Below, in pieces: positions 10,021 to 25,335 of a stretch of DNA of 42,455 nucleotides (its first letter is position 1; each line of letters starts with the position of its first letter). The DNA is from an uncultured Mediterraneibacter sp. (GTDB lineage Bacteria; Bacillota; Clostridia; Lachnospirales; Lachnospiraceae): contig CALWLJ010000027.1 in assembly GCA_944381495.1 (NCBI GenBank), positions 1-42,455 of the forward strand, in the 5' to 3' direction. Position numbers and translations under genes: made by a program. The notes beneath the pieces were generated by a model. It was not told the DNA's origin. It was given only the letters and a program-made list of their open reading frames with translations, and did not search any database.

Positions 10021-10158
10021 CCGTGAAGGAGCTGTGTTGCCACGAAGGCCCGCAGCAGAACGCCGGCACTTAAGCCGCGTCCTTTGCGGCTTTACGTGTC
10101 CGCTGCGCTCTGCTCCGAGCGAAATCGCGGCCGCCGGGGCAACACAGCTCCTTCGCGG
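10021..10158. repeat. Long hairpin element, copy A, with an insert in its loop
   Basis: Arms 10021-10041 and 10138-10158 form a 21-bp stem with a single T-G pair (core GAAGGAGCTGTGTTGCC). The loop begins ACGAAGGCCCG and reaches CGCCGG, as in copy B (25267-25335). Unlike copy B, about 70 further bases follow, bounded by a second CGCCGG and containing the smaller hairpin AAGCCGC/GCGGCTT. No T tract follows on either strand, so it is not an ordinary terminator. It fills most of the gap between the regulator gene and the next minus-strand gene. Confidence 0.8.
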
Positions 10159-10189
10159 CGGACGTCTGAGAAAAACTCAGCACTCCCCC

Positions 10190-10552
10190 TCAAAGCCTGT
10201 ATACCCCCATAAACTCCGGATAGTACTGCTCAATCGCTCTATTGAACTGCATTTTCAGGAGTCCTATAGTCAGGACCCAGGAAATACCCAGCGCCCCGAC
10301 TCCCATAACCAGCGTGAAGATAAGACTGATCAGCATCGCCGCTCCGCCCGCCTCTGTGGCAAACATCAGCAGATTTACAACAATAATGCAGACAAATACG
10401 GTCACAGCCGCTCTTCTAAATCCCGTACATCTGTTATCCTGATCATGCTTCAGTTTCTCATAGACCCGCCCCAGCTCTTTTGAGGAATATTTCTTTTCTT
10501 TCAGATTCTTCTTAATTGTTCTGTCCAGTTCAACATAATGAATTGCAGCCAT
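10190..10552 (-). CDS. Small membrane protein, function unknown
   Basis: The 120-residue protein starts MAAIHYVELD. Its charged N-terminal half (KKNLKEKKYSSKELGRVYEK) is followed by two hydrophobic helices at about residues 48-70 (AAVTVFVCIIVVNLLMF) and 75-100 (LISLIFTLVMGVGALGI). I do not recognise the family. Its ATG overlaps the TAA of the upstream gene as TAATG, and GGAGGAAA at the end of that gene serves as ribosome binding site, so it is translationally coupled to the EF-Tu-domain-2-like membrane protein. The two may work together at the membrane, but no function can be assigned. Confidence 0.75.
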   Translation of the reverse strand: MAAIHYVELDRTIKKNLKEKKYSSKELGRVYEKLKHDQDNRCTGFRRAAVTVFVCIIVVNLLMFATEAGGAAMLISLIFTLVMGVGALGISWVLTIGLLKMQFNRAIEQYYPEFMGVYRL

Positions 10553-11022
10553 TATTTTCCTCCATAAACAATCACATCTCCAGGCTTCAGTTCTTCCGCT
10601 TCCACATTTTTCAGCCAGACCGCAGCTGCCGTATCTGCCGCCCCCGGCGCAGCCTGCCCACGGACCTCGATGCCGCGGATCTTTGTGCGGATCACATTTC
10701 CGCTCTGTGCGTGAACCTCCACCCGGTCTCCCACTTCCATCGTTCCGGCAACTACACCTGCAGCAACACATCCTCCACTTTTCATAGCAAATACATCCTC
10801 AACAACAAATCGATAACGGTCCCTCCCCACCTTTCCGCGAAAACAGGATACACATGCACATAGGAACACAACAGTAAGCATCCCCGCCCCGACAGTCAGA
10901 TGATACTTCTTCCGTCCCGGCGCAGCCGAGCCATGCTCCATCCGGAAAAAGATAACAGTAAGTACCGCAAAGACCGCCGCAAGGAACAGATATTTTAGTA
11001 TGTTGAAAATTCTTTTCCTCAT
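10552..11022 (-). CDS. Membrane-anchored protein with an EF-Tu domain-2-like beta barrel
   Basis: The 156-residue protein has two N-terminal hydrophobic helices (about 8-28 and 42-60). A soluble domain follows that reads like domain 2 of EF-Tu/IF-2 translational GTPases: RFVVEDVFAMKSGGCVAAG, then GTMEVGDRVEV, then ELKPGDVIV. In EF-Tu this barrel follows the GTPase domain, which is wholly absent here. Such stand-alone barrels occur in small Firmicute membrane proteins, but I know of no assigned role. The gene lies 50 bases after the YczE-like gene and overlaps the next gene, forming a three-gene minus-strand operon. GGGGGAAAT lies nine bases before the ATG. The fold call is fairly secure; the function is open. 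Confidence 0.75.
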   Translation of the reverse strand: MRKRIFNILKYLFLAAVFAVLTVIFFRMEHGSAAPGRKKYHLTVGAGMLTVVFLCACVSCFRGKVGRDRYRFVVEDVFAMKSGGCVAAGVVAGTMEVGDRVEVHAQSGNVIRTKIRGIEVRGQAAPGAADTAAAVWLKNVEAEELKPGDVIVYGGK

Positions 11023-11072
11023 TTCTTATTTCCCCCACATTTTCTCAGACGACCGCATTGTACAGACCGGGA

Positions 11073-11729
11073 TCAGATTTCCTCCAGTTTCCAGCGGTTC
11101 AGGAGCTTCCCAAGCTGTTTCGCGATCAGCCCGACCATGATGGCTGCCGCCACAGTTCCTTCTCTCACTCCCTGGAGCTGATGAGTAAAGACAAGAGACA
11201 GAACACATGCGATCACAACAAGTGTCACATCAAAACCGACTTTCATATAACCGAACTTCACCGGAATTACCTGGCAGATAGCAAGGACTACGCCCTCCCC
11301 CGCCAGCACAACCACCCCGGCCTTAACCTCCAGGCTGACCCCTATGGCCACCAGCAAGATACCGATCAGACAGAGGATCCACTGCTGCCAGTACGCATTA
11401 TAAGAAATTCCCTGCACAGCCCACACGCCAAAATCCGTCAGATACCCGAAGAAAAACGCCACCGGAAGCTGCATCAGCTGGATCGGATGATAATTCTTCC
11501 TCAGAATCAAGATCTGCATCAGAATAAAAACACAATGCATGATGATCGTCGCTGTTCCCACCGTAAGCGGCGTAAACAGACTCACAACATAAGGGACACT
11601 GGAGATCGGCGACGTGCCCAGACTGGCCTTGATCGAAAAGGCCACCCCGAAAGCCATGATCGACAAACCGACCAGAAGCAAAAGATAACGTTTCAGAATT
11701 GTGATATGTAACTTATTCAACTTGATCAT
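11073..11729 (-). CDS. YczE/YyaS-type integral membrane protein (DUF6198)
   Basis: The 218-residue protein has five or so membrane helices. The N-terminal signature FGVAFSIKASLGTSPISSVP is characteristic of YczE-like proteins, which resemble YitT-type membrane proteins. The role is unknown; some members lie near regulators of secondary metabolism. A frameshifted paralogue lies at 27889-28631. Near the start, AAGGA abuts the ATG at 11729 with no spacing, while the TTG three codons later (11720) is eight bases downstream, so TTG may be the true start. A TATAAT box at 11752-11747 has its -35 region inside the 47-bp palindrome at 11755-11801. First gene of a probable operon with the two genes downstream. 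Confidence 0.85.
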   Translation of the reverse strand: MIKLNKLHITILKRYLLLLVGLSIMAFGVAFSIKASLGTSPISSVPYVVSLFTPLTVGTATIIMHCVFILMQILILRKNYHPIQLMQLPVAFFFGYLTDFGVWAVQGISYNAYWQQWILCLIGILLVAIGVSLEVKAGVVVLAGEGVVLAICQVIPVKFGYMKVGFDVTLVVIACVLSLVFTHQLQGVREGTVAAAIMVGLIAKQLGKLLNRWKLEEI

Positions 11730-11754
11730 TCCTTTCTTTCCAGTCTATTATACC

Positions 11755-11801
11755 TCAATTGGGGACGTAGTAAAATCGGATTTTACTACGTCCCCAATTG
11801 A
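11755..11801. repeat. 47-bp perfect palindrome
   Basis: Two 23-base arms (left arm begins TCAATTGGGGACGTAG) surround a single central G at 11778 with no mismatch. It lies between the YczE-like gene and the hsp20 terminator, covers the -35 region of the YczE promoter, and is followed by related fragments (GTGTCCCAAAT, CCTGTCCC). The GGGGAC/GTCCCC ends recall REP-like sequences mobilised by Y1 (RAYT) transposases; no transposase is present here. Confidence 0.85.
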
Positions 11802-11847
11802 AATTCAGTGTGTCCCAAATCGAATTTCGCCCTGTCCCTTTTTAACG

Positions 11848-11878
11848 AAAAAAGGCCCGGCATCTTACGTGCCGGACC
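11848..11878 (-). terminator. Terminator of hsp20
   Basis: On the minus strand GGTCCGGCA (11878-11870) pairs with TGCCGGGCC (11862-11854), followed by six T. It lies 35 bases after the hsp20 stop. Confidence 0.92.
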
Positions 11879-11912
11879 CCATTTCTTATGTTTTATGCCC
11901 TTACGGGAAAGA

Positions 11913-12365
11913 TCAGCCTTCAATTGCAATGGTCTTTTTCGTCTCAACTGCTTTTGCATCCTTTTTCGGAATGCTCAGTTTCAGGATACCATCTTCGAAC
12001 TTAGCCTTGATGTCTTCCTGTGTTACTGCGTCGCCTACATAGAAGCTTCTCTGCATAGCGCCTGCGTAACGCTCTTTCCTGATGTATTTACCTTTCTTAT
12101 CCTGCTCATCCTTATCCAATCCCTTAGATGCGGAAATGGTCAGGTAACCGTTCTCAAGTTCAACGTTGATCTCGTCTTTCTTGAATCCCGGCAGGTCTAC
12201 ATCCAGTTCATATCCTGTATCATGTTCCCTGATATCGGTCTTCATGATATTCTTTGCGTTTTTACCATAAAGTGGATTCTTTCTTCCCCAGAAATCTCTG
12301 TCAAACGGAAAATCCATCCAGTCATCATCAAATAAATTCTCTCCAAAAATACTCGGCATTAACAT
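11913..12365 (-). CDS. Small heat shock protein, Hsp20/alpha-crystallin family
   Basis: The 150-residue ATP-independent holdase starts MLMPSIFGENLFDD, the standard N terminus of clostridial Hsp20. The alpha-crystallin domain spans about residues 42-135, with ELDVDLPGFKKDEINVELEN and the family's 'A.F.DGIL.L..PK' block (AKFEDGILKLSIPKK) containing the C-terminal I-x-I-like anchor. It binds unfolding proteins under heat or other stress and passes them to DnaK or ClpB. GGAG lies nine bases before the ATG. It has its own promoter with a CIRCE operator 190-235 bases upstream and its own terminator, so it is a single-gene unit under HrcA control, with a leader of about 185 bases. Confidence 0.95.
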   Translation of the reverse strand: MLMPSIFGENLFDDDWMDFPFDRDFWGRKNPLYGKNAKNIMKTDIREHDTGYELDVDLPGFKKDEINVELENGYLTISASKGLDKDEQDKKGKYIRKERYAGAMQRSFYVGDAVTQEDIKAKFEDGILKLSIPKKDAKAVETKKTIAIEG

Positions 12366-12557
12366 AAGTCATTACTCCTTCCATTATTAAAACATTAGAA
12401 ATAAGTTTTTATGAGCCGCTTTCGGCGGCTGCCATACGCACTCTTGAAGTTGTCTCAAGTGTTGCAAGCTGAGGAAACTCGGGATTCGGAGCTTCTTCCG
12501 GAACCTTTCTGCTTTCTTTATCGGTTCCTTTTGTTCCTCTTCCTTTGTTCTAGTTGT

Positions 12558-12586
12558 AATATAGCACCCGCTATCAGCACTGTCAA
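12558..12586 (-). promoter_or_regulatory. Sigma-A promoter of hsp20
   Basis: On the minus strand a consensus TTGACA (12586-12581) and TATATT (12563-12558) are separated by 17 bases. The -35 box lies inside the CIRCE operator. The leader to the ATG is about 185 bases and contains the hairpin AGCCGC/GCGGCT near 12415-12431. Confidence 0.88.
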
Positions 12587-12600
12587 CCCACGAGTGCTAG
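12574..12600 (-). promoter_or_regulatory. CIRCE operator (HrcA site)
   Basis: TCAGCACTG (12574-12582), nine bases, GAGTGCTAG (12592-12600) match the CIRCE form TTAGCACTC-N9-GAGTGCTAA with the exact 9-base spacer. The operator covers the -35 box of the hsp20 promoter, so HrcA binding would block RNA polymerase. Confidence 0.9.
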
Positions 12601-12700
12601 TTTTTTCAAAAAATTTTTAAATCCTTATTTATCTTAAAGAACAGAAAATAATAACTGATAGCTAATAGACGGATATCCGCTACGAAAAAGGACAGATAGA

Positions 12701-13087
12701 TTATGATTTCATGTTTCTATTTTTAATCCAAAGCGAAAGATTTTCGATACCTCTATCAATCCCGCCAATAATAACAAATCCTCTGATAATAGTAAAAAAG
12801 TTCACTTTATCCCATGCTATCTCCATAATTAAAAACACGATTGCCACAAAAAAGAAAAACAAGGCCCTTATCAGGCTTCCGTCTGATGGTATCTTTTTAT
12901 TTGTTTTAAGTACAGGAATGTCCAGCAGAAACTTGAAGAGCAGCCATATATAAATTCCATAAAGTATAAAAGTCACTCTATTCCCCCATGGAGATATTGC
13001 TTCGGGATGATTAAATACATAACACATAAAACAGACTGCAATGATCAGTAAAAAAATTCCAATAAGCAAATATATTTTTTTCTTCAT
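12701..13087 (-). CDS. Small integral membrane protein, function unknown
   Basis: The 128-residue, strongly hydrophobic protein has about four membrane helices: 5-25 (YLLIGIFLLIIAVCFMCYVF), 38-58 (VTFILYGIYIWLLFKFLL), 72-92 (LIRALFFFFVAIVFLIM) and 97-112. It ends in a basic tail (WIKNRNMKS). I recognise no family motif. AGGAGGCC lies eight bases before the ATG. The gene is clearly richer in A+T than its neighbours, which may mean recent acquisition or simply its hydrophobic content. It stands alone, between hsp20 (same strand, own promoter) and a divergent hydrolase gene. Confidence 0.7.
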   Translation of the reverse strand: MKKKIYLLIGIFLLIIAVCFMCYVFNHPEAISPWGNRVTFILYGIYIWLLFKFLLDIPVLKTNKKIPSDGSLIRALFFFFVAIVFLIMEIAWDKVNFFTIIRGFVIIGGIDRGIENLSLWIKNRNMKS

Positions 13088-13366
13088 GTCTCTGGCCTCC
13101 TTTACAATTCCGGTTTATTGCTGATTTCATTATACTATATCAGCTCTCCAAACGGAAAGTAATTCCCCAAAATCAATTTTTATCGCTTTCTTATCTGTTC
13201 CCCATTCACATGAAATCACATCTCCCCGCCATTTTTCACGCATTGTCACGCCCCGGTTAATTGAACGCCCCGCCCTATTCTGCTATTCTGATATGGTGCT
13301 TTACTATATTATAGCAGCAACGCAATATATCAAAAGATAAACATCAGGATATGGGAGGATGATACA

Positions 13367-14104
13367 ATGCTTATTAAAGAATATGGAGATAAAAACGGAA
13401 AGGCTGTCTTATGTGTCCCCGGAGTTTTCATGGCAGCTGAATGTTTCCGGAGACTCGCAGAGGAACTGCCTGAATATCGGATGGTATGCGTAACGCTGGA
13501 CGGTTTTCATCCGGATTCTGATGAATTCGAAAGTCTGGAACAGCAGACAGAAAAGCTGGTCCATATGCTTCAGGACAGAGGCACCACTGATTTCGAGCTG
13601 GTGATCGGTCTTTCCATGGGAACCATCTTTGCTGTCAGGCTGGCAAAACATCCCTCATTACATATTAAGAAGCTGCTCCTCGACGGTGCGGTCAATTTCT
13701 ACCGTTCAAAATACAAGCCTGTCGTACATGCGGCGATCTACCTGATCTTTTCCTATTTTATGAAAACATCAGGCGACAAGGAGCGAAGCATCCGCGATCT
13801 GGGAAAGGTCTATGGCGGAGACTGGCCGGAAATACAGTACATCTGCCGAACCTCTCTTACAAAGCCTTCCCTTCGCGTGATCGCAAAGCTCCTTGCAGAT
13901 TACAAACTGGAGCCGGGAGTTACCCAGCCCATGTACCTGCTGTACGGAGGAGACGAAGACAATGTCCAGACTAACAGCAAAGTCGTAAAAGAGCTGTACC
14001 CGGATGCAAAAATATCTGTAAAACCCGGTTACAATCATCTCGCATTTCTGAACAGAGAACCCGTGGAATACGGAAAGATCGTAAGGAAAATCCTGGACAG
14101 ATAA
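13367..14104 (+). CDS. Alpha/beta hydrolase
   Basis: The 245-residue alpha/beta-hydrolase-fold protein contains the nucleophile elbow GLSMGT (Ser about residue 86), a late acidic residue in LLYGGDEDNV (about 192) and the catalytic His in PGYNHLAF (about 225). The oxyanion region is near VPGVFMAAECF. No signal peptide is present, so it is cytoplasmic. Substrate is not predictable: the family includes esterases, lipases and peptidases. GGGAGGATG lies nine bases before the ATG. A TATATTAT box at about 13311-13318 could be the -10, but no good -35 is seen. It is a single-gene unit on the plus strand amid minus-strand genes. Confidence 0.88.
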   Translation: MLIKEYGDKNGKAVLCVPGVFMAAECFRRLAEELPEYRMVCVTLDGFHPDSDEFESLEQQTEKLVHMLQDRGTTDFELVIGLSMGTIFAVRLAKHPSLHIKKLLLDGAVNFYRSKYKPVVHAAIYLIFSYFMKTSGDKERSIRDLGKVYGGDWPEIQYICRTSLTKPSLRVIAKLLADYKLEPGVTQPMYLLYGGDEDNVQTNSKVVKELYPDAKISVKPGYNHLAFLNREPVEYGKIVRKILDR

Positions 14105-14123
14105 CGGGCAGATACGCCCCGGA

Positions 14124-14459
14124 TTACTCCTGAAACTCTTTCCTCAGCACTTCCTTCGGCGGTTCGATCTCATTTGCAATGGTGTGCTCCGTCAGTTCGG
14201 ACAGAAGTTTTATCTTCTTATTCAGAAGAGGCCTCATACAGTTGGGCACATGCTCCTGATGGGCTCTGTGTATAGCCACACATTCCTTGCAGTTGCCGTG
14301 GTAGCGGCAGGCTTTCTTACAGGGACAGTGATCCTTGTCCCTGTATTCTTCTCGGAACTGTGCCGCGAACTCTTCCTGGAGCCGGAGCCCCTCCTGGCGG
14401 TTGCCCTTGTGAAATTCTTTCATTGCTGCAAGCTCTTTCTCATTTCCCTCGATGATCAT
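14124..14459 (-). CDS. Small cysteine-rich protein, function unknown
   Basis: The 111-residue protein starts MIIEGNEKELAAMKEFHK. Its centre carries a compact Cys/His cluster, HCPCKKACRYHGNCKECV, followed by a later NCM, with spacing C-x-C-x3-C-x5-C-x2-C, likely to hold a metal. Similar 'CPC...C..HGNC..CV..H' segments occur in short clostridial proteins of unknown role. An in-frame ATG lies two codons upstream, but GGGAGG is eight bases from the ATG at 14459, so that start is chosen. It follows the AlkZ-related gene by 85 bases on the same strand and may be the last gene of that unit. Confidence 0.7.
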   Translation of the reverse strand: MIIEGNEKELAAMKEFHKGNRQEGLRLQEEFAAQFREEYRDKDHCPCKKACRYHGNCKECVAIHRAHQEHVPNCMRPLLNKKIKLLSELTEHTIANEIEPPKEVLRKEFQE

Positions 14460-14544
14460 TCTCATTTCCTCCCATATAAATAATACTTCTCTTATTGAAA
14501 ATAATAACGCCTGAAAACAATACCTCTTGAAAATAATACCGCTC

Positions 14545-15270
14545 TTATCGGATCATCTTCCGGATCTGACCTTCCTCAGCATCCGGAAACTCTCCTGTAA
14601 TCTTTTCCATTATCCGTTCAAAAGATCTCTGCGGATCCTCCCGGTAGGCTGATGTTACCTCTTCATACCCCCACAGATGTTCCGGCGTCGTATACACGGC
14701 GATCGGCCAGCCGTATTCCACGCCGTCCTTTTTGCGTCTTCTTCTCCGGAAATCCCGGTTCAGGATATAGCCCTGCATCTGCAGGTCCGTGATCACGCCA
14801 TCGAAGTTCTTCTCTCCGCCTTTTCCGAACCCGGCCTGCCTTTTCACTTCAAAGGAATACAGCTCCTTCTCGTCCTCGAACAGATCCATGATCTTCTTGC
14901 TCCGGTTGCTGGCCAGCTCATCGTCATACCGGGCGTCAAAATCATACCCGTCCCGCCTGTAATTGGCGAAGACCGGGAACCATTCTCTGGAAATGAACCC
15001 AGCCTTCCTGTCAAAGAACTTCCCGTAGGCGGCCTGCCCGCTTCTGGCAATGATCTCCCGCCACACCCAGGGATCCTGTTCGGGATCGCCGGTCCACCAT
15101 GCATAGGGGTAAACATGATCTTCCACAGAAAATCCTTCCGCCCCATTGGCGAACAGCGGCAGGAACCCCACCTGGTCAATATACCGGATCAGTTCCTCCG
15201 GCGTCCGGATCCGCAGCGGGTTGTCCCAATCCAGGCCGCGCATGATCCACTCTCCCGATTCATTTGGCAT
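14545..15270 (-). CDS. Putative DNA-glycosylase-like protein (AlkZ-related), uncertain
   Basis: The 241-residue protein begins MPNESGEWIM and has the conserved blocks GFLPLFANGAEGFSVEDH, WWTGDPEQDPWVWREIIA and QAGFGKGGEKNFDGVITDLQ. Proteins with these blocks are common in Lachnospiraceae and are often described as AlkZ-related; AlkZ/YcaQ enzymes unhook DNA crosslinks. I recall this name from memory and cannot test it. Arginine-rich RDFRRRRRKK near residue 195 fits nucleic acid binding. GGGAGG lies seven bases before this ATG; the longer frame upstream is non-coding leader. It follows the PtuB-like gene by 74 bases on the same strand but has the GC-rich composition of the core genome, unlike the AT-rich Septu pair. 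Confidence 0.55.
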   Translation of the reverse strand: MPNESGEWIMRGLDWDNPLRIRTPEELIRYIDQVGFLPLFANGAEGFSVEDHVYPYAWWTGDPEQDPWVWREIIARSGQAAYGKFFDRKAGFISREWFPVFANYRRDGYDFDARYDDELASNRSKKIMDLFEDEKELYSFEVKRQAGFGKGGEKNFDGVITDLQMQGYILNRDFRRRRRKKDGVEYGWPIAVYTTPEHLWGYEEVTSAYREDPQRSFERIMEKITGEFPDAEEGQIRKMIR

Positions 15271-15344
15271 ATGTAATTCCTCCCTTGCTGTTATTCTGAA
15301 GAATTGGCGGATGTTCTGGAGCGTCTTGTCAGTTCTTCTCCCAC

Positions 15345-15917
15345 TTACATTGTTCTCCAAAACCATTTGATCACATTAAAATATGGTTGATATTCCTCAT
15401 CTTCTTCATTCATGTAAACCAGATTTATTGTATCTTTATCCAGATTCTGAAGTTTTTTAATAACAGCTTTTCTTGCATTTTTCAACTCATAATCATTTAA
15501 ATTCAAAAGATCAATAGTATAATCATCTCCTACTATTTTCCCGTCTGCATAATATGTAAATTTATCCTCGCAGTGTTCATCTAAAGGAGACACAAACTTT
15601 TCTTTATCGTAATTGTTATCTTTTTTTCGCCCGCAGGTCCTTACATTATTACAGGCGGCAACAATATTCATATAATCCAGTGTTTTAGTGCTTGTATGCC
15701 TCCCCGGATGTCTCGGCTCGATATGTTCATTATGAGATTTTTGTTCTGAAATACGTCCACAACAGTATGCACAGATTCCTTTTTGCTCCTTTATCAAAGC
15801 TTGATTAAGTTTTGGACGGTACTCTGCAAATTCCGGACTGTCATAATCTTTTTGAGGATATTTCTTCTTGAAATCTATAAGAAAACCAGGCTCATTTTCT
15901 TTTTTGATATACAACAT
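15345..15917 (-). CDS. ptuB: Septu-like HNH nuclease (PtuB, TIGR02646-type)
   Basis: The 190-residue HNH-family nuclease has the zinc/HNH features in order: CAYC (C49, C52) followed by C53, SHNEHIEPRHPGRH (residues 61-74), DYMNIVAACNN (81-91) and C95. This is the arrangement of TIGR02646/PtuB proteins, the effector of Septu phage defence, which cuts DNA when released by its ATPase partner. Its ATG overlaps the stop of the ATPase gene (TAATG), the usual ptuA-ptuB order. The gene is AT-rich compared with flanking genes, consistent with horizontal transfer. Retron-associated PtuB relatives exist, but I find no reverse transcriptase in the window. The role as effector is from the family. Confidence 0.8.
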   Translation of the reverse strand: MLYIKKENEPGFLIDFKKKYPQKDYDSPEFAEYRPKLNQALIKEQKGICAYCCGRISEQKSHNEHIEPRHPGRHTSTKTLDYMNIVAACNNVRTCGRKKDNNYDKEKFVSPLDEHCEDKFTYYADGKIVGDDYTIDLLNLNDYELKNARKAVIKKLQNLDKDTINLVYMNEEDEEYQPYFNVIKWFWRTM

Positions 15918-17170: not shown

Positions 17171-17489
17171 ATCGCGCCTCCTGACTTTTATGTTCTGATT
17201 TCTTGTTTTGTTTCTGCTTTTCCAAAAGATCTACTCTTAATACCTCACATTATTTATCTTAAAGCAGTCGATATGATTATTGGCAGATCACCGATAAATA
17301 TCACATAGTTCAGATACTTTGCCACACCGAATCACTACTTCTTTATTCTATCAAATCACCATGCTTTTCGCTATCTCTTATTTTCAATTATCCCCATATC
17401 TGTAAGCGGGTAGTCAGATGTATCTCGAATTCCACTTTACTTTTGATCGGATAGGGCGAGATTCCTGTCCCGCTGTTCGTTGCACACCA

Positions 17490-17607: not shown

Positions 17608-20600
17608 TCATGCCTTCTTCTGTTTCTTCTCTTTCGGCGCTTTGTAATTTTCCGGATGAGCCTTCGCATCCTTCGTTCTGCGTACCATGTAGATCACCAT
17701 GACAACCGTCAGCACTCCTACGGAGATGTTGGAGATCCACAGACCGATCTTCCAGGGTGACATAGTATAGCTGATAGTAGTTCCCGGTGCGATGTTGTTC
17801 ATGGAACGGCTGTTTACCACAGCATAGCACATATCTTTTACCGCACGGCGGATCACAGAGACTGCTGTAGCGCTTTCTGTATCCTCGATCAGTGAAGTAA
17901 AGGAATCACCCCATGCCATCCATGTATCTGTTCCGGACCGGAGTGCAGAGTCCACGCTGTTGGATCCTGCGTTCATGACCATATCGGAGATCACCATTCC
18001 GCGGAACCCCCACTCGTCACGGAGAAGCTCTGTGTTAAGCGCGTAGTTTGCTCCGCCCCATGTGAATCCGAAGTAATTCATGCAGTTCATGATACCGGTT
18101 GCCCCGCGCATCGTACGTGTGGAGACTGTACCGTCTTCGTCCGATGTATAGTTGATCGTCATTCTTGCCTGTTTCACTGCGATCTCAAACGGCTTCAGAT
18201 AGATTTCTCTCATAGCCTGCTCGTTGCACCAGATGGAAACACGGCTTCTGTCGTTGTCGTAAAGTTCCTCGTCATTGAGAGCAAAATGCTTGATGGTCGT
18301 GATCAGTCCCTGATCAGAGCATCCGGACACCACATAGGCTCCCATGATACCTGAAAGCAGCGGATCCTCGCTGTAGTACTCAAAGTTTCTTCCCGAGAAC
18401 GGGGAACGGTGGATGTTCATAGCCGGAGCATACCAGCTGTTCACTCCTGCGCTCATGGCTTCCTGTCCCACTGCCTCGCCCATGTTGTAGGCAAGATCTG
18501 TGTTAAATGTAGCGGCAATGATCGGCTCGCTGGGATATGCAGTGTACTCGAAGGAGTCTGTAATGCTTCCAACGATTCCCTGCGGTCCGTCATAATCTAC
18601 AGTAGCCGGTTTTCCGACAGATACAATAGCTGCTGTCTGGTCATAGGACGCCGCCAGAGCCACATACAGGCTGGGATCAGAGAAATCCAGCTGATCCATC
18701 AGATCATCCCAGCGGGGATCATCATAATCAGCGCCTCGCAGGGAAGCCAGGGAATCTCCGTTGTCCGCGTCTGTTTCAGGCATATCTTCTGTATAGACTT
18801 TGCTTCCCTCTACATTTCCCAGAGTCTCATCTGTGGAGAGGTCGATTGGAGAAAGTGTCATAGTGCCGTCACCATTGTCTGTCCCTACGCCTTCCGGGGC
18901 AGTCCGCTCGTCCGCTGTCGGTGATGTAGCCGTATTCATCAGCGGTCCGTTGGCTCTTGTGAGCTGGCTGGTGGACGCCATATGATCTGTCATTTCCTGG
19001 AAAAGGTTTGTTGCCGCTGTGTACTCCGTGGAGCCGTCGGATTTTGTCATGACCTCTTCCGTATAATTGCCTTCATCATCCAGCTGTGACTGTGCCTCGA
19101 TCTCGGATTGACGCGGATTATCGTTGTCATACCAGATTGTATCCGGAACTGTCACGGTTCTGGAATCATACTCCTCATGTGCATTGGCATTGATGCTGAT
19201 GGCGTAATCGCCGCCCTCCAGCACATAGGCTCCTGCCGTTCCGTCCGGATTCTCTCTCGTGTAGCAGTAGGACGCCATATCTTCTTTATCAAAAGTTACT
19301 GTCACTTCCGCTGACTGGCCGGGCGCGATCTCGTCCGTCTTGTCATAAGCGATCAGGTTTCCTGTAGATTTCTCAATCTGATTCTCGATATCGAAATCCG
19401 TATAGGGAGGGTTGTAATATACCTGCACCACATCTTTTCCTGCCCTTGTGCCATTATTGGTCACTGTAACAGTCAGAGTAACTGTATCTTCATCTTCTGT
19501 CAGATCTGTAATACTCTGAGTAAAGTCTGTATCATAGCTCAGTCCGTATCCGAAGGGGATCTGGACCGCCGCGTCATAATCCTGTCCGTCCTGACCGAAC
19601 ACGCTGAATGTTCCGCCGGTATCGTCAACCGTCTCATAATAACGGTATCCTACATAAATGTTTTCCTCATACTCAAGGAAGTTCATCTCTGTGGGATCGC
19701 CTACCGGATTGGGGAATCCGCCGGCCACCAGATAGAGGTTGTCATATTCATAATTTCCGAAATTTGCAGAGCTGGGATCGGACATAATATCTGTCATCCA
19801 CGTGTCCACTGCTCTTCCTGACGGGTTTACATCCCCGCAGAGGATCTCGCCCATAGCCTGGAAACCTTTTCCGCCCGGTCCTCCGATCCAGAGGATCGCG
19901 TCCGCGGACAACTCTCCGTCCTCTTCCATCAGCTCACTGATCTCCATCACATTAGATGTATTCAGGATCACTACAACATTTTCACAGTTTGCCTTGGCAA
20001 AACGGATCATTTCCTTCTCTGCCTCAGAGAGCTGGAGCTGATGAGCCGTGCCGTCCACATATCCGGTGCCATAGATGGCGCTACCTTCTACATCTGCCTG
20101 GACGTCGCTTCCTTCTCCGCCTACACGTCCGATAAATACAATACCTGTAGTTCCCTGGCAGGATTCTTCCATTCCGTCATATACGGAAGGCTCATACTCT
20201 ATGATATCGATTCCGGCGCCCTCAAATCCGCCTTCCTCATTTGCCCGCTCATAGCCTTCCGCGTTCATTCCTCTTGCATCGCCGCTGTTCAGAGCGTCTT
20301 CCATGGCTTCATTTACATTGAAATACTCATGCAGGGCGCCGGAAGCGGTCACGATCTGATCAGAATCTGTATTTACATTACCGGAACCTGTTCCGCCGTA
20401 GACCGGACTTATATATCTGTATCCAAAAGGCGTCACTGAAGAGCCTTTTTCCAGAGGCAGTACCCCGTTATTCTTAAAGAGGACTTCGCCTTCCTCCGCG
20501 ATCTGAAGAGCTGCACTCTGAGAAATCTCTGTCAGTTCGTCGCCGTTTTCATAGTCTGCCGTATAATACTCTGTATCCCACTCCGAAGCCTCATCCGGGA

Positions 20601-20763
20601 CTGTTGTCACCATCTCTCCTCTGCCCAGGAAGATCTCCATGGAGAGGGAGAAGAAATTCATCAGGATCGTTGCCGTAATATCAAGGGCAAGCAGAACCGC
20701 CAGTACGATGGCCCAGATCCGGACGAACTTTTTGTTATTCATCTTTAACTTTTTACTTTCCAT
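17608..20763 (-). CDS. Membrane-anchored glycoside hydrolase family 3 with inverted domain order
   Basis: The 1051-residue protein has its GH3 C-domain first (about 85-400; EGEVLFKNNGVLPLEKGSS, then GPGGKGFQAMGEILCGD), an Fn3-like domain next (VTLTVTVTNNGTRAGKDVVQ), and the GH3 TIM-barrel domain last (about 690-970). The barrel has IKHFALNDEELYDNDRSRV and the nucleophile Asp of GMVISDM at about 927. Inverted GH3s are known from rumen and gut clostridia. One membrane helix lies at about 14-36 and another near 1010-1032, so the enzyme is anchored at both ends, presumably with the catalytic part outside. The substrate may be a beta-glucoside or beta-xyloside. AGCGGAGG precedes the ATG. It has its own promoter, a leader hairpin and a terminator. 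Confidence 0.88.
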   Translation of the reverse strand: MESKKLKMNNKKFVRIWAIVLAVLLALDITATILMNFFSLSMEIFLGRGEMVTTVPDEASEWDTEYYTADYENGDELTEISQSAALQIAEEGEVLFKNNGVLPLEKGSSVTPFGYRYISPVYGGTGSGNVNTDSDQIVTASGALHEYFNVNEAMEDALNSGDARGMNAEGYERANEEGGFEGAGIDIIEYEPSVYDGMEESCQGTTGIVFIGRVGGEGSDVQADVEGSAIYGTGYVDGTAHQLQLSEAEKEMIRFAKANCENVVVILNTSNVMEISELMEEDGELSADAILWIGGPGGKGFQAMGEILCGDVNPSGRAVDTWMTDIMSDPSSANFGNYEYDNLYLVAGGFPNPVGDPTEMNFLEYEENIYVGYRYYETVDDTGGTFSVFGQDGQDYDAAVQIPFGYGLSYDTDFTQSITDLTEDEDTVTLTVTVTNNGTRAGKDVVQVYYNPPYTDFDIENQIEKSTGNLIAYDKTDEIAPGQSAEVTVTFDKEDMASYCYTRENPDGTAGAYVLEGGDYAISINANAHEEYDSRTVTVPDTIWYDNDNPRQSEIEAQSQLDDEGNYTEEVMTKSDGSTEYTAATNLFQEMTDHMASTSQLTRANGPLMNTATSPTADERTAPEGVGTDNGDGTMTLSPIDLSTDETLGNVEGSKVYTEDMPETDADNGDSLASLRGADYDDPRWDDLMDQLDFSDPSLYVALAASYDQTAAIVSVGKPATVDYDGPQGIVGSITDSFEYTAYPSEPIIAATFNTDLAYNMGEAVGQEAMSAGVNSWYAPAMNIHRSPFSGRNFEYYSEDPLLSGIMGAYVVSGCSDQGLITTIKHFALNDEELYDNDRSRVSIWCNEQAMREIYLKPFEIAVKQARMTINYTSDEDGTVSTRTMRGATGIMNCMNYFGFTWGGANYALNTELLRDEWGFRGMVISDMVMNAGSNSVDSALRSGTDTWMAWGDSFTSLIEDTESATAVSVIRRAVKDMCYAVVNSRSMNNIAPGTTISYTMSPWKIGLWISNISVGVLTVVMVIYMVRRTKDAKAHPENYKAPKEKKQKKA

Positions 20764-20787
20764 CTCTTTCCTCCGCTTTTACAATAG

Positions 20788-20825
20788 TGAAAAGGGAGCC
20801 GGCTCCCGGGATTTTCTGGCTCCTC
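20788..20825 (-). terminator. Terminator-like hairpin in the GH3 leader (possible attenuator)
   Basis: On the minus strand GGAGCC (20823-20818) can pair with GGCTCC (20800-20795), followed by CTTTTC. The same bases also form the perfect 14-base palindrome GGGAGCCGGCTCCC (20794-20807). It lies between the GH3 promoter and its start codon. It may instead terminate the upstream kinase transcript. Confidence 0.5.
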
Positions 20826-20840
20826 TTTCCTTACACGGGG

Positions 20841-20870
20841 ATCATAACATAAGATGAAATTTTTGTGTAA
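20841..20870 (-). promoter_or_regulatory. Promoter of the GH3 gene
   Basis: On the minus strand TTACAC (20870-20865) and TATGAT (20846-20841) are separated by 18 bases, with a TG one base before the -10 (extended -10). The leader would be about 70 bases and includes a terminator-like hairpin. Confidence 0.6.
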
Positions 20871-20923
20871 AATCTGGTGGGAACTGTCAGAATTGTGATG
20901 TATTTGGTAAATATATGACAGAT

Positions 20924-22225
20924 TCAGAACAGAATATCCAGGATAAACTTCCCGTTTTGATGGCTCATTTCCGCTTCTCCGCCATATTTTTGTGCAATAT
21001 AACGGATACTTCTCGTGCCAAACCCGTGGAACCGCTTATCTTCCTTAGTCGTAACCGGCAGTCCGTCTTCAAACCGAAGTTCATCTGAACATTCATTTTC
21101 CATATGGATGAAAAGCATGTCCTGCTGCCCGGCAACATTCAGGCTGATGATCCGCTTCTCTTCCGGCTCCCGGATGACCGATGCGATGGCATTGTCAAGA
21201 GCATTGCCGAACAGGGAATAGATATCTGCCGCATTCATAAATGACAGCCGCTTTCCGTCAATGATATATGTAAACTTTATATTGTATTTCTGGCAGATCA
21301 GGCTCTTCTCCGTCAGCACCAGGTCAACCGCATCATTGCCGGATTTCACCATGCTGTCATAGATCATGACGCTTTTCTGGAACTCTTCGATCTTTTCCCG
21401 GCGGAGGTTCTCATTGTCAATGCCTTCCAGAGCCTGTATCTGATACTTCAGGTCATGACACTTGATATTAATGATATCAATATTTTCCTTCGACATCTCA
21501 TGCTGCTGTTTTTCCATATGAAGGAGCTGCTCCAGGATCTCATTCTGAGATTCCAGCTTATTCCGGCTGGACAGATCGAACTGCATGGCAATGCCCAGAG
21601 AGCAGGCGATCACTGCGTACAGCCGGCAGATCACACTTGTCATAATACCGTTTCCCGTATCCAGTCCCTCGCCCATAACAGAAAGAACGATACTGCTCAG
21701 GAGCACACAGGCGGAAACCAGACTCATGCGGATATCCGCATCCTTCAGTTCCCTTTCCTGATATTTTTTCACAAGAATTTTATAAAAAATAACGCCCGCC
21801 GCGGCAAAAACAAGGAAATTCAGGACCAGTTTGTCAACGATCCAGGGAATCGCATCCGCCACCAGCACAGACCGGATCATGTATCTGCACGCCTGGGTGA
21901 GCGCGTAAGTAATATGCTGCGCCGCATATCCGGCCGTACCCACAAAGAGGATATCCCTCCTTCTGACATCGAACAGAATATGCATCATAAACATCGTAAC
22001 CCCGAACAGCAGCAGATAATATACGATCTCCATAGGATAGTAAGATGCAGGAATCCGGCGGATCAGACGGATCAGGCCCACTCCGGCGCCATAGTAGACA
22101 GCCAGCATCCCGATCAGTTTCGCCGCGAAATGTTCTTTCCTCGGGAGAGGCCAGGAAAACGCCGCCTCCATAATAAACAGCTGGGTAGAAAAGTTGAAGA
22201 AATATTCATATACATATCGTTCCAT
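20924..22225 (-). CDS. GHKL-type sensor histidine kinase (AgrC-like)
   Basis: The 433-residue kinase has about six N-terminal membrane helices (1-215), a coiled coil rich in Gln and Glu (about 222-250), the phospho-acceptor region IKCHDLKYQIQAL (His about 257) and a GHKL ATPase domain with the N box FGNALDNAIASV and the glycine box FHGFGTRSIRYIA. This layout is that of AgrC/ComD-like peptide sensors and of VirS-type kinases. Its ATG overlaps the LytTR regulator's stop as TAATG. No AgrD-like peptide gene or AgrB protease is visible nearby, so the ligand may be something else. The GH3 gene starts 160 bases downstream with its own promoter, so it may be a target. Confidence 0.9.
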   Translation of the reverse strand: MERYVYEYFFNFSTQLFIMEAAFSWPLPRKEHFAAKLIGMLAVYYGAGVGLIRLIRRIPASYYPMEIVYYLLLFGVTMFMMHILFDVRRRDILFVGTAGYAAQHITYALTQACRYMIRSVLVADAIPWIVDKLVLNFLVFAAAGVIFYKILVKKYQERELKDADIRMSLVSACVLLSSIVLSVMGEGLDTGNGIMTSVICRLYAVIACSLGIAMQFDLSSRNKLESQNEILEQLLHMEKQQHEMSKENIDIINIKCHDLKYQIQALEGIDNENLRREKIEEFQKSVMIYDSMVKSGNDAVDLVLTEKSLICQKYNIKFTYIIDGKRLSFMNAADIYSLFGNALDNAIASVIREPEEKRIISLNVAGQQDMLFIHMENECSDELRFEDGLPVTTKEDKRFHGFGTRSIRYIAQKYGGEAEMSHQNGKFILDILF

Positions 22226-22950
22226 TACTGCTCCCCTCCCAGATATCTCATCAGCTCCGCATAAAGCGTCTTCTGATGGCTCCTGCTGACCGGTATCGCC
22301 TCATCTGCCACCCATACCGTGTCCTTCCGTATCTTCCGGACATGCCTCAGATTGACCAGACAGCCGCTGGAGCATTTTCCGAAGCCATAACTTAAAAACT
22401 CTCCTTCTTTCCGCGCGATTGTTCCTCTCTCCCGGAACTCTCCCATGGATGTATGATAAATGATATAGTTTTTATTCTTGTCCTTCTCCAGATAATAGAT
22501 CTCCGAGAAAGGGACCCGCACGATACCATCTTCCCCTTCCATCAGAGCTGTCTTCTCCCTCCGGGTTGACTGAAACCGCAGCGCTTTGCGGAACTTGTCC
22601 AGAAAGGTATAATACTCTACCGGCTTCACAATGAAGTCAAGAGCATTCACCTCATATCCATTGATGGCATACTGAGCCATATTTGTCACAAAGATCAGGC
22701 TGACGGACTCGTCAACCTTCCGGATCCTCCTGGCCGTCTCCAGGCCGTCCGCCCCGGGCATCTCAATGTCCAGGAAGATCACGTCGTACACCGCCGAAAA
22801 TCCATCCAGAAAAGCCACACTGTCCGAAAAGGTTTCCACAATGCAGTCCACCTTCTCTTCCTCAGCCGCCTGACCGGCATACCCCTTCATCTTTTCAAGA
22901 AATGCCCTGTCATCATCCACCAGGGCGATCCGTACTTTCGCTGACGGCAT
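22225..22950 (-). CDS. LytTR-family response regulator
   Basis: The 241-residue protein has a receiver domain (7-125) with acidic residues D12-D14, phosphorylatable D61 in VIFLDIEMPGADGLE, and the Lys of FIVKPVEYY. A LytTR DNA-binding domain (about 140-238) follows, with VPFSEIYYLEKDKNKNYII and CLVNLRHVRKI. LytTR proteins bind direct repeats and usually control toxins, exoenzymes or quorum-sensing operons with a GHKL kinase partner, which follows immediately. GGGGGAAT lies before the ATG. The first 38 bases overlap, in another frame, the end of the P-loop protein gene. Such a long same-strand overlap is unusual and suggests that the upstream gene's end was altered. Confidence 0.92.
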   Translation of the reverse strand: MPSAKVRIALVDDDRAFLEKMKGYAGQAAEEEKVDCIVETFSDSVAFLDGFSAVYDVIFLDIEMPGADGLETARRIRKVDESVSLIFVTNMAQYAINGYEVNALDFIVKPVEYYTFLDKFRKALRFQSTRREKTALMEGEDGIVRVPFSEIYYLEKDKNKNYIIYHTSMGEFRERGTIARKEGEFLSYGFGKCSSGCLVNLRHVRKIRKDTVWVADEAIPVSRSHQKTLYAELMRYLGGEQ

Positions 22951-23941
22951 CTGCAGATTCCCCCTTTTCCCTTTTCCACAGGAGATCGATTCCTGTCATG
23001 CCATTTAGGATCTTATCGCTAATATTCCGTTCCGTATATGCTTTATTCAGCACTCTTTTTGAGTATTTTAAATAAGAGTCTTTCGTCAGATTAATAAGAA
23101 GCGATGTAAAAAATCGTTCCCAGCTAAAAAACTCACTGCTTTCAATATAGGAACCAGGATCTTCCAGGATTCCTTTCACTCTTCTTTCTTCAAATATTCC
23201 TGATCGTAAAACAAGCCATTCAAACGATTCCGGAAGATACAGAACAATATCCTCGCTTTTTTTTATCAGCTGCATCAGTCTGCGCATCTCGGAACCAAAT
23301 GCCGCCCCATCTGCAACAATAAGCATATTTTTTGAATTACACTTATTGACCATCTGAAAAACATTGGATTTCCCATTGGCAGAAATACATTGAATATTAT
23401 TGTGTTCACAAACGGAATCAAAAAATTGAAATCCTGCATTAGAATCTTCCGTGATTACCAGATCAGGCCTGATTTCCTCTGCGTAATTATCTTTCTCATA
23501 AATATGGAACATTTCGTTATATGTCTGCTTCAGGCTTCCATATTTTCCCGATGTACGAATACCGTAAATTTCAGAGACACTATATGGCAGAGTCTCAAGA
23601 CTTTCCCTTGTCACGATCACATAGTAATTATCAGTCTCTCTGATAACTTCCGCAAACTCCCTGGAAGATACAAACCTGTTTCCTTCATCTATGAAAATAA
23701 TGCACTTTGACAACTCAGACAATTGACCTTTCCATCCACGGCCTTCTATTACGGCACAAGTTCTGTCTGCAACAACACTTATGCCACTGTCATCTCCATT
23801 TTCGTAATATTCCTGGATCATTTCGACCAATGTCGTTTTTCCTGTGGCACTGTCTCCCTGTATAACCGTAAGGTTTCTTTTTATTTCAAAATCATATTTA
23901 ATTTTTTTATTTTGTACAACGACTCTGTATGTTCCTTTCAT
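22913..23941 (-). CDS. P-loop ATPase of unknown function, partner of DUF4869
   Basis: The 342-residue protein has a Walker A at 29-36 (GDSATGKT) and a Walker-B-like KCIIFIDEGNRF at 80-90. After residue 150 comes a second region, VITEDSNAGFQFFDSVCEHN, then MLIVADGAAFGSEMRRLMQL, which reads like a Toprim-type alternation of strands and acidic residues (inference). The last 100 residues contain SSEFFSWERFFTSLLINL and a charged tail running into the next gene. Relatives are widespread in Lachnospiraceae next to DUF4869 proteins, to my recollection under uninformative names. GGAGAGGAAT precedes the ATG and only nine bases separate it from the DUF4869 gene. The gene is AT-rich compared with the kinase genes. 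Confidence 0.7.
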   Translation of the reverse strand: MKGTYRVVVQNKKIKYDFEIKRNLTVIQGDSATGKTTLVEMIQEYYENGDDSGISVVADRTCAVIEGRGWKGQLSELSKCIIFIDEGNRFVSSREFAEVIRETDNYYVIVTRESLETLPYSVSEIYGIRTSGKYGSLKQTYNEMFHIYEKDNYAEEIRPDLVITEDSNAGFQFFDSVCEHNNIQCISANGKSNVFQMVNKCNSKNMLIVADGAAFGSEMRRLMQLIKKSEDIVLYLPESFEWLVLRSGIFEERRVKGILEDPGSYIESSEFFSWERFFTSLLINLTKDSYLKYSKRVLNKAYTERNISDKILNGMTGIDLLWKREKGESADAVSESTDRPGG

Positions 23942-23950
23942 ATTCCTCTC

Positions 23951-24388
23951 CTATACATATCTGCCTGCGATCGGGACTAATTCCTCCATATTGTGTACAA
24001 TCTGATCTGTGTTAAGGATTTTGATACGGAACTGACCTTCTCCGAAATCCATGATATGTCTGAGATTAATTGTGATGTCTTTATCCTGTCCCAGCTTAAG
24101 GATCCATTTTGCACAATTATCACCACAAGTTGAAGCATTGAAAATTCTGTCCGGCTCATTTGCAATCAGCAGCAGCGTCTTCACTCCCCCTGACAGATTC
24201 AGCGGTGGTATTTTACCCAAAACAGGACTGTCTATGACTCCCCCTGCCAAAACAGTGGATTTATCAACATCAAGGATCATTTCTCTGCCAAGAGGCGCTG
24301 TGATCCAGTCCTCTTCATAAACATTTTTAAAATAAACTGCGGTGTTATATATTGCTTCCTGCATATCTCCAAAAAAAATACTTAACAT
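23951..24388 (-). CDS. DUF4869-type protein
   Basis: The 145-residue soluble protein starts MLSIFFGDMQEAIYNTAVYF, which I recognise as the N terminus of DUF4869 proteins. Other features are PPLNLSGGVKTLLLIANEPD near residue 75, a Cys pair in NASTCGDNCAKWI (about 103-113) and an ending ELVPIAGRYV. No catalytic motif is evident. It is the first gene of a cassette with the P-loop ATPase. GGGGAGAAG precedes the ATG and a plausible promoter lies about 30 bases upstream. In gut clostridia such pairs look mobile. The function is not known; a defence or phage-related role is conceivable but not shown by the sequence. Confidence 0.7.
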   Translation of the reverse strand: MLSIFFGDMQEAIYNTAVYFKNVYEEDWITAPLGREMILDVDKSTVLAGGVIDSPVLGKIPPLNLSGGVKTLLLIANEPDRIFNASTCGDNCAKWILKLGQDKDITINLRHIMDFGEGQFRIKILNTDQIVHNMEELVPIAGRYV

Positions 24389-24416
24389 ATAACTTCTCCC
24401 CTTTCCTGGTTAATAT

Positions 24417-24444
24417 ATCATATTCCGCAAGGTAAAATTCCCAA
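24417..24444 (-). promoter_or_regulatory. Possible promoter of the DUF4869/P-loop cassette
   Basis: On the minus strand TTGGGA (24444-24439) and TATGAT (24422-24417) are separated by 16 bases, in the 77-base gap after the TetR gene. The -35 match is weak. Confidence 0.4.
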
Positions 24445-24465
24445 ATTTCAACTGGCAGGTATTTT

Positions 24466-25017
24466 TCATTTTTCTGTTATATCTGCTAGCATCGGCTGCA
24501 GACATTTCACGATCTTCTCTATCGTCTTCACAAACGTCTCACCATCCGCCTCCGGATTATTCAGGAACGCATGATAGGTCCCCTGGATACAGTACGACAA
24601 CAGGATATTCTTCTCAACATCCTTCTCATATTCCGGATACTTTCGAAAGATCACCTTCTTCAGTTCATAGTCCAACTGATTTCCCAGATGGTTCTGCTCC
24701 TTTCCTGAAAACAGGATTCGGATCAGAGAAATCTGGGACATAAATGCCAGGCACAACGCCCTTGTAAACGCATCTGAATTCTCAAAAGTGTAATCTTTCA
24801 AATGTTCGATACTGTTTATAATAGACGCTACTGTCTCCTGTTCCATCGCCTCAGAAAGTGCATATATATCCGCATAATGAGAATAAAATGTAGATTTGTT
24901 AATATATGCCTCGGCACACAGCTCCTTCACCGTAATCTTCTCCAACGGCTTCCTGGCCCGCAGCTCAATAAACGCATTCTTAATAGCCTTCTCCGTCTTC
25001 TCAACTCTCAGATCCAT
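24466..25017 (-). CDS. TetR/AcrR-family transcriptional regulator
   Basis: The 183-residue protein has an N-terminal helix-turn-helix at about residues 26-52 (ITVKELCAEAYINKSTFYSH), the TetR-family DNA-binding signature. The C-terminal 130 residues are helical and bind an unknown ligand. In-frame ATGs exist at 25038 and 25023, but GGAGG lies eight bases before the ATG at 25017 (MDLRVEKTEK), so that start is used. A promoter at 25188-25216 points toward the gene with a leader of about 165 bases. The nearest divergent gene is glgB, and the DUF4869 cassette lies downstream. Either may be a target, but no operator is evident. Confidence 0.88.
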   Translation of the reverse strand: MDLRVEKTEKAIKNAFIELRARKPLEKITVKELCAEAYINKSTFYSHYADIYALSEAMEQETVASIINSIEHLKDYTFENSDAFTRALCLAFMSQISLIRILFSGKEQNHLGNQLDYELKKVIFRKYPEYEKDVEKNILLSYCIQGTYHAFLNNPEADGETFVKTIEKIVKCLQPMLADITEK

Positions 25018-25187
25018 CACCATCTCCTCCAGATCCATAAAATGGTCATATATATGATATCAATACGACCTGATACCGCCCCGCATGCACCTTCGCAGAA
25101 TTACCCGACACTTTCCAGACAACCGTCGTTTTTCCAACACATTTCTAAAATCGTCGGTGGACGTTCTCTTTACCCTCAGATAATATA

Positions 25188-25216
25188 ATTATACGGCAAT
25201 AAACGACAGTTGTCCA
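25188..25216 (-). promoter_or_regulatory. Promoter pointing to the TetR gene
   Basis: On the minus strand TGGACA (25216-25211) and consensus TATAAT (25193-25188) are separated by 17 bases. The A/T palindrome around 25181-25195 gives a second TATAAT on the plus strand, so divergent transcription toward glgB is possible, though no good plus-strand -35 is seen. Confidence 0.6.
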
Positions 25217-25266
25217 TTTTAAGCATTACCGTTCATCTGCCGCGGTTCACCTCTGCCCGGATTCCA

Positions 25267-25335
25267 GGCATGGAGGAGCCGTATTGTCACGAAGGCCCGT
25301 AGCAGAGCGCCGGGACAATACGGCTCCTTCATGCC
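25267..25335. repeat. Long hairpin element, copy B
   Basis: Arms 25267-25288 (begins GGCATGGAGGAGCCG) and 25314-25335 pair over 22 bp with one G-T. The 25-base loop (25289-25313) begins ACGAAGGCCCG and ends CGCCGG, differing from copy A at only two positions. It lies 50 bases upstream of the glgB start codon. No T tract follows. The remainder of the gap 25018-25384 shows only the TetR promoter. Confidence 0.85.

What the first reader, a model, noticed from the sequence alone, without database searches (positions are those of the whole stretch)
10021..25335. Two copies of a long hairpin with a covarying stem and a constant loop
Copies at 10021-10158 and 25267-25335 share a 25-base loop start (ACGAAGGCCCG to CGCCGG, two differences). 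Their stems differ at three paired positions, and each change is compensated: T-A becomes C-G, G-C becomes A-T, C-G becomes T-A. Compensated changes with a fixed loop argue that the folded form, as RNA or single-stranded DNA, is selected. There is no T tract, so it is not a plain terminator. One copy lies before glgB, the other after a membrane-protein operon. The arm motif GGAGGAGCTGTGT recurs in the terminator at 37651-37684.
Basis: seen in the sequence. Interest (0 to 1): 0.75.

Follow-up and report, generated by a model that had tools for sequence, protein, structure and literature searches.

The report
Mobile folded repeats in gut bacteria
Many gut bacteria of one large family carry scattered copies of a small, apparently mobile piece of DNA whose single strand folds into a conserved three-armed shape on a stem of freely changing sequence; it matches no family in the RNA catalogue searched, and a pair of copies has been kept in front of an essential gene.

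Summary
The two window hairpins belong to a dispersed family: 28 long and 11 short or partial loci in this genome (genus inferred to be Mediterraneibacter), and matches in 119 of 299 sampled genomes of its family, one per genus. A long copy is ~140 nt: an outer stem of free sequence, a three-way-junction core, and a small hairpin that is GNRA-capped in 98 of 100 relatives. The window's second copy has lost most of the core. The fold covaries strongly (30 of 56 pairs in 22 long copies). In one relative, copies are 263-264-bp MITE-like units with inverted ends and 7-bp target duplications (9 of 11 exact). After insertion, dispersed copies mostly decay without compensation. An exception is ileS: all 16 genomes compared have a copy before it, 11 also a second, divergent one; both evolve with compensation and G-U rather than A-C wobbles, in element orientation. 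Best reading: a non-autonomous mobile element whose folded single strand matters for spreading, with one exapted pair. No Rfam match; the transposase is unknown.

The parts
10020..10159 (+). Long copy: 22-bp outer stem (10020-10041 with 10138-10159) around the three-way-junction core (10042-10137)
   Evidence: R1 model 157.1 bits, E 6.8e-29; inverted repeat; first row of the 22-sequence alignment A1
10042..10066 (+). Conserved core start ACGAAGGCCCGCAGCAGAACGCCGG
   Evidence: pattern found 28 times in the own genome with up to 3 mismatches, reversed-pattern control 0; two of the 28 are on C27, which duplicates the window
10119..10128 (+). Small hairpin that carries a GNRA tetraloop in 98 of 100 relatives; this copy departs from it (AAAT loop after one change)
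9995..10019 (+). Left foot beginning CTGTTCAG, the common foot beside other copies; the matching right foot (from 10160) is degenerate here
   Evidence: recurs beside other copies; element boundaries not proven in this genus
25267..25335 (+). Short copy: outer stem 25267-25288 with 25314-25335 and the core start 25289-25313; rest of the core missing
   Evidence: R1 48.2 bits, E 9.4e-8; arms; comparison of short and long forms
37646..37689 (-). Possible core-less remnant or chance hairpin; not claimed as a member
   Evidence: R1 14.5 bits, E 0.32; no R2 hit

Best explanation
A family of non-autonomous, MITE-like mobile elements of Lachnospiraceae whose conserved part is a structure, not a gene: a three-way-junction core at the tip of an outer stem that must pair but may have almost any sequence. 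Shown: a dispersed multi-copy family; strong covariation; strand-specific wobble in the outer stem and a GNRA-type loop; near-identical copies with terminal inverted repeats and 7-bp target duplications in one relative; decay of dispersed copies after insertion in one species comparison; copies kept with compensation before ileS. Inferred: copies are moved in trans by a transposase not identified here; the fold of one strand (RNA, or single-stranded DNA of fixed polarity) is needed for an element to spread, so selection on pairing acts on the lineages that keep moving and stops once a copy is fixed; the ileS pair was later taken into use by the host.
For: Copies: 28 long + 11 short or partial loci in the own genome. 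Spread: 119 of 299 family genomes with model R2, 100 of 397 with R1. Mobility: in G230, 11 distinct copies with both ends were measured; 9 have exact 7-bp duplications, one 6/7, one 3/7; mean 6.55 against 1.92 (sd 0.57) over 900 offsets; several copies 98-100% alike over the core. Structure: A1 (MAFFT, 22 of the 28 long copies): 96.2% of cells paired, 134 two-sided changes against 32.5 (sd 5.1) in shuffles, slid controls 31-49% paired. GNRA loop in 98 of 100 rows. Single strand: outer stem G-U 101 against A-C 36, 18 columns against 4 (fitted alignment); 19 against 1 and 16 against 2 at ileS (MAFFT alignments). Decay after insertion: of 498 Watson-Crick pairs 28 became unpaired or wobble (9 G-U, 9 A-C, 10 other) and 4 were compensated. 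No clear gene-orientation bias: own genome ++ 8, -- 8, -+ 6, +- 6 of 28, by crude ORF calls. Close pairs: 20 of 20 two-match loci are divergent (10 at ileS, one at a contig end that looks the same, 9 elsewhere).
Against: Target duplications were shown in one relative only; in the window's genus the ends are blurred, and the candidate empty sites that I aligned were deletions or unclear. No autonomous partner was found, but little was searched. A conserved RNA-like core is not expected of an element moved only through its inverted repeats. In helix P3 of A2, A-C (63) exceeds G-U (23), mostly at columns that pair badly; over the whole structure without two columns that are usually G-U, the ratio is only 154:106. 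At ileS the column-wise sign tests are modest (outer stem 6:1, p 0.125, and 9:1, p 0.021). Reverse-direction decay counts are milder (17 uncompensated, 7 compensated). The distal ileS copy keeps its fold on the strand antisense to ileS, yet a simple scan found no promoter in the spacers.
Confidence: 0.5

Rival explanations
1. A family of regulatory or trans-acting structured RNAs used by the host; copies spread because they are useful, like a dispersed riboswitch or sRNA.
For: GNRA loops in 98 of 100, covariation also inside the core, in-situ compensation at ileS, T-box leader beside the pair in the one locus tested with a lax threshold.
Against: No clear orientation preference relative to genes, decay of orthologous dispersed copies, no promoter-like sites in the ileS spacers by a simple scan, inverted ends and target duplications in G230.
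Confidence: 0.2
2. Host-maintained extragenic palindromes of the REP/BIME kind that act on mRNA ends, attenuation or DNA topology.
For: Intergenic, often close to gene ends, mosaics with other hairpin modules.
Against: No clear orientation bias; pairing mostly not kept after insertion; an asymmetric core is conserved, which a symmetric palindrome does not need.
Confidence: 0.13
3. The paired changes arise mechanically: arms of a palindrome copy each other during replication (template switching), without selection.
For: Outer-stem sequence is nearly free while pairing is near-perfect.
Against: Correction should act on dispersed copies too, but these acquire A-C and other mismatches; it predicts G-U equal to A-C, while ileS copies show 19:1 and 16:2; it does not explain the GNRA loop.
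Confidence: 0.1
4. Ordinary intrinsic terminators that look alike by chance.
For: Hairpins near gene ends.
Against: No T tract, copy 2 lies just before a start codon, conserved asymmetric core, 39 loci.
Confidence: 0.02

Closest known systems
REPINs (REP doublets linked to RAYT transposases; PMC3116915, passages read)
   Same: Miniature, extragenic, non-coding, many copies; inverted doublets; a hairpin of variable sequence whose changes are often compensated; decayed singlets
   Different: REPINs have conserved REP ends and a variable hairpin between them; here the core is conserved and the outer stem varies. REPINs are linked to tyrosine transposases (RAYTs); here 7-bp target duplications occur in one relative. 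No RAYT search was made.
BOX elements of Streptococcus pneumoniae (PMC3049150, passages read)
   Same: Modular dispersed repeat predicted to fold as RNA and thought to be a mobile parasite; one BOX forms a composite with two T-box riboswitches, much as the pair at ileS does here
   Different: No BOX sequence was compared; BOX is described for S. pneumoniae and S. suis, against a family-wide spread with a covarying three-way junction here; the word 'compensatory' does not occur in that paper's main text
MITEs with terminal inverted repeats and target duplications (general class; ERIC and Correia elements named in PMC3049150 passages)
   Same: Inverted ends and target duplications (shown in G230), no gene, full-length complementarity
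   Different: Inverted ends and outer stems differ between genera while the internal structured core is what is conserved
Rfam structured RNA families
   Same: Covariation and a GNRA loop, typical of structured RNA
   Different: No family at gathering score in the window; weak hits on copy 1 only at E 0.98-4.4

Membership tests
MITE (non-autonomous DNA transposon) | Terminal inverted repeats | tested here: met
   G230: 11 distinct copies with GGGTGTCAAAAGCCC (up to 2 mismatches) at both ends; in the window's genus only variable CTGTTCA/TGAACAG feet
MITE (non-autonomous DNA transposon) | Target-site duplication | tested here: met
   7 bp, 9 of 11 exact in G230; not shown in the window's genus
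MITE (non-autonomous DNA transposon) | Short, without a gene, many copies | tested here: met
   263-264 bp in G230; 39 loci in the own genome
MITE (non-autonomous DNA transposon) | Autonomous partner with the same ends | tested here: inconclusive
   20 of 73 end sites in G230 were compared with the core: 15 have all of it, 2 part (39 and 55 nt), 2 only 22-26 nt, 1 none; 6 loci were printed and one flanking frame was searched, an FtsX-like permease; no systematic transposase search
REPIN/REP-RAYT | Inverted doublet as the unit | tested here: inconclusive
   Two-match loci are divergent in 20 of 20, but most copies in the own genome are single and tandem copies occur
REPIN/REP-RAYT | Cognate RAYT (Y1) transposase in the genome | not tested
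REPIN/REP-RAYT | Insertion without target duplication (recalled for Y1/IS200-IS605 chemistry) | tested here: not met
   7-bp duplications in G230
Any Rfam 15 family | Score at the gathering threshold | tested here: not met
   0 matches in the window; in 16 relative loci one T-box, beside and not on the element
Intrinsic terminator | Hairpin followed by a T tract | tested here: not met
   (the two window copies)
BOX element | boxA-boxB-boxC modules | not tested
   no BOX sequence or model was compared

The most novel reading that the evidence does not exclude
A new kind of mobile element that is recognised for movement as a folded single strand (an RNA-like three-way junction on a stem of arbitrary sequence) rather than by conserved terminal sequences, so that inverted ends and stems drift freely between lineages; a divergent pair of it has been domesticated in the T-box leader of ileS and works from both strands.
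Probability: 0.27. Interest if true: 0.87.

Novelty: new variant of a known kind. Interest (0 to 1): 0.62.

Why it matters
It would be a widespread repeat of a major gut-bacterial family in which a nucleic-acid fold, not a protein gene or end sequence, is the heritable identity of the element. It offers a natural experiment: decaying dispersed copies beside in-situ compensated copies at one essential gene. It makes testable whether some miniature mobile elements travel through, or are recognised as, a folded single strand, and it warns that covariation across copies of a repeat is not by itself evidence for a host RNA.

Tried and rejected
Rfam at gathering and lax thresholds: no family for the element. 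Blastn in distant mode: no match in phages (window copy 1) or plasmids (window copy 1 and a G230 copy). IMG/VR scan with one strict pattern: 0. Gene-orientation bias: none in the own genome; in 59 further copies -- 19, ++ 11, +- 16, -+ 11, 2 undetermined, and 4 of 59 lie inside an ORF of 150 or more residues; gene calls were crude. I suspected that insertion copies the target as an inverted repeat, because one sister-genome site (L069/L279) lacks the element inside a small hairpin; L075/L309 shows that internal deletions also leave such remains, so I dropped it. Of 8 candidate empty sites suggested I aligned 5 (L059, L075, L078, L084, L087); none gave a clean junction. Sequestering of the ileS Shine-Dalgarno by the stem foot: mean pairing 0.79 in 15 loci, but shuffled upstream sequence gives 0.61, so undecided. 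Promoters in the ileS spacers: none by a simple scan of 11 loci. L068/L274 (same site, different element) and L069/L279 were left out of the decay count. Papers: the listings (some capped) showed no description of this element. PMC8040213 (abstract, outline and passages seen) reports 3161 candidate RNAs in supplements that I could not open, so it may be there unnamed. Of PMC2864571, PMC3049150 and PMC3116915 I saw passages only.
Full report
What was checked. The two hairpins exist at the stated places. The first (10020-10159) is a 22-bp outer stem around a structured core; the second (25267-25335) is the same stem design with most of the core missing. A pattern of the shared core start gave 28 hits in the window's genome against 0 for the reversed pattern; two of them are on contig C27, which has the window's length and coordinates while the window is also placed on C11, so they are duplicates.

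Names. That genus g1 is Mediterraneibacter and family f1 Lachnospiraceae is inferred from the named records and matching contig lengths (e.g. 63,439 bases for G029:C2 and DXCZ01000042.1).

Anatomy. Twenty-two of the 28 long own-genome copies were aligned with MAFFT (A1). RNAalifold gives 56 pairs, 30 with changes on both sides. Counted on that structure: 96.2% of cells paired; 134 two-sided changes against 32.5 (sd 5.1) in shuffles; covariation score 0.356 against 0.148; structures slid by 1-3 columns pair 31-49%. From the outside in there is a stem of free sequence, a short junction helix, a long arm with bulges and a U-rich apical loop, and a small hairpin. The small loop is GNRA in 98 of 100 relatives (GAAA 38, GAGA 37, GGGA 14, GCGA 4, GGAA 3, GCAA 2). 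Window copy 1 has one change there and folds with a different loop. In 100 relatives aligned to the model (A2, so fitted to the structure), 53 of 56 pairs have two-sided changes, 94.1% of cells pair, and outer-stem pairs use all four Watson-Crick types.

Copy number and spread. Model R1 finds 61 rows at E<=0.01 in the own genome; after dropping 20 opposite-strand echoes and two C27 rows there are 28 long and 11 short or partial loci. R1 matches 28 of 41 genus genomes, 100 of 397 family genomes, 44 of 392 order genomes and 8 of 391 class genomes; each match listed in the order and class searches lies in the window's own family. The broader model R2 matches 119 of 299 family genomes, one per genus, and 5 of 398 phylum genomes, one of them (G1473, three copies with different outer stems) outside the family. 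These counts include the own genome; copy numbers per genome are capped in the large searches. A strict pattern found none in viral contigs, and blastn found none in phages or plasmids.

Mobility. In genome G230 the copies are 263-264-bp units with GGGTGTCAAAAGCCC inverted ends. Eleven distinct copies with both ends were measured: 9 have an exact 7-bp direct duplication, one has 6 of 7 and one 3 of 7; the mean is 6.55 of 7 against 1.92 (sd 0.57) over 900 offsets. By eye, 6 of the 11 sit beside another small hairpin repeat. In G704 and G174, near-identical copies with other inverted ends, and a tandem array, were read. In the window's genus the element sits in mosaics with other palindromic modules, and clean insertion ends could not be shown; the possible empty sites that I aligned were deletions or unclear.

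Which strand folds. If only double-stranded DNA mattered, G-U and A-C mismatches should be about equal in element orientation. In the outer stem of A2 they are 101 and 36, with 18 columns against 4 (this alignment leans to the structure). In the unfitted A1 they are 24 and 12. In helix P3 of A2 the reverse holds (23 and 63), mostly in columns that pair badly; over all pairs but two columns that are usually G-U the counts are 154 and 106. At ileS, in MAFFT alignments, the outer-stem counts are 19 G-U, 1 A-C and 8 other for the proximal copies, and 16, 2 and 6 for the distal ones, although the two lie in opposite orientation; by column this is 6 against 1 (p 0.125) and 9 against 1 (p 0.021). This points to the element strand, as RNA or as single-stranded DNA; the GNRA loop favours RNA, and the lack of promoter-like sites between the pair leaves it open.

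What happens after insertion. Thirteen own-genome copies were compared with their orthologous region in sister genome G029. Leaving out ileS, one site with a different element and one where the element is missing, ten remain. From own to G029, of 498 Watson-Crick pairs 465 are unchanged, 4 compensated, 9 became G-U, 9 A-C, 10 other mismatches and 1 a gap; in the reverse direction 470, 7, 9, 4, 4 and 4. So dispersed copies mostly decay. At ileS 10 pairs are compensated against 3 uncompensated changes (6 in reverse).

The ileS pair. The gene is ileS by NCBIfam TIGR00392 (597 and 601 bits on 492-residue fragments, below the whole-protein cut-off of 621). In 16 genomes of the genus a copy lies in sense direction before ileS: about 20 bases before the start in 15, and 160 in G007, where partial copies intervene. 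In 11 of the 16 I aligned a second, reversed copy upstream; the own genome lacks it. In the one locus tested with a lax threshold, a T-box leader lies upstream (58 bits, E 6.6e-12, below the gathering score of 93). Two-sided changes occur in 28 of 50 pairs of the proximal set and 26 of 55 of the distal set. The foot of the proximal stem may pair with the Shine-Dalgarno, but a shuffled control is not far below (0.79 against 0.61). Among the 80 loci, 20 hold two matches and all 20 are divergent (10 at ileS, one at a contig end that looks the same, 9 elsewhere). Tandem copies occur in other places; I saw no convergent close pair in displayed rows but did not count these systematically, and the tables are truncated.

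Interpretation. Multi-copy spread, inverted ends and target duplications in a relative, lack of orientation bias and decay after insertion argue for a non-autonomous mobile element. Maintenance of the fold across lineages, but not in fixed copies, suggests that the fold is used while the element spreads; this step is inferred. The ileS pair looks exapted. It works most like REPINs and BOX elements (passages of PMC3116915 and PMC3049150). It is filed under MITE-like only loosely, since the mover is unknown and the duplications were shown in one relative.

Noticed in passing
own-genome copies L060, L062, L066, L073, L074, L076 (up to about 330 bases 5' of the element): Two further palindromic modules (a GGTTCCGGG...-type hairpin and GGCGCGGC...GCCGCGCC) repeat in the same order beside several copies, forming larger mosaics of up to about 470 bases.
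   Followed up: partly
L205, L207, L208, L210, L211, L255 flanks (genome G230): Six of 11 insertion sites lie beside another small hairpin repeat (GAAAGTC...GACTTTC type) with copy-specific outer arms.
   Followed up: no
L213 (G174:C21:12016-13322): Three copies in a direct tandem array with a 187-base period.
   Followed up: no
L121:980-1110 (G007, before ileS): The 3' part of the element with its small hairpin is repeated twice more, in tandem, between the proximal copy and ileS.
   Followed up: no
L059 and L061 flanks (copies also shown as L006 and L015): Inverted complementarity continues past the common ends into copy-specific flanking DNA (e.g. AAATTTTA/TAAAATTT); unexplained.
   Followed up: no
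L082:1904-2211 against L290: A stretch of about 308 bases, apparently coding, is present in the window's genome and absent in sister genome G029.
   Followed up: no
G000 contigs C11 and C27: The window appears twice in its own assembly (C27 has the window's length and coordinates), so raw copy counts must be corrected.
   Followed up: yes
L068 against L274: The same intergenic site holds two different elements of the family in sister genomes, suggesting an insertion hot spot or element replacement.
   Followed up: partly
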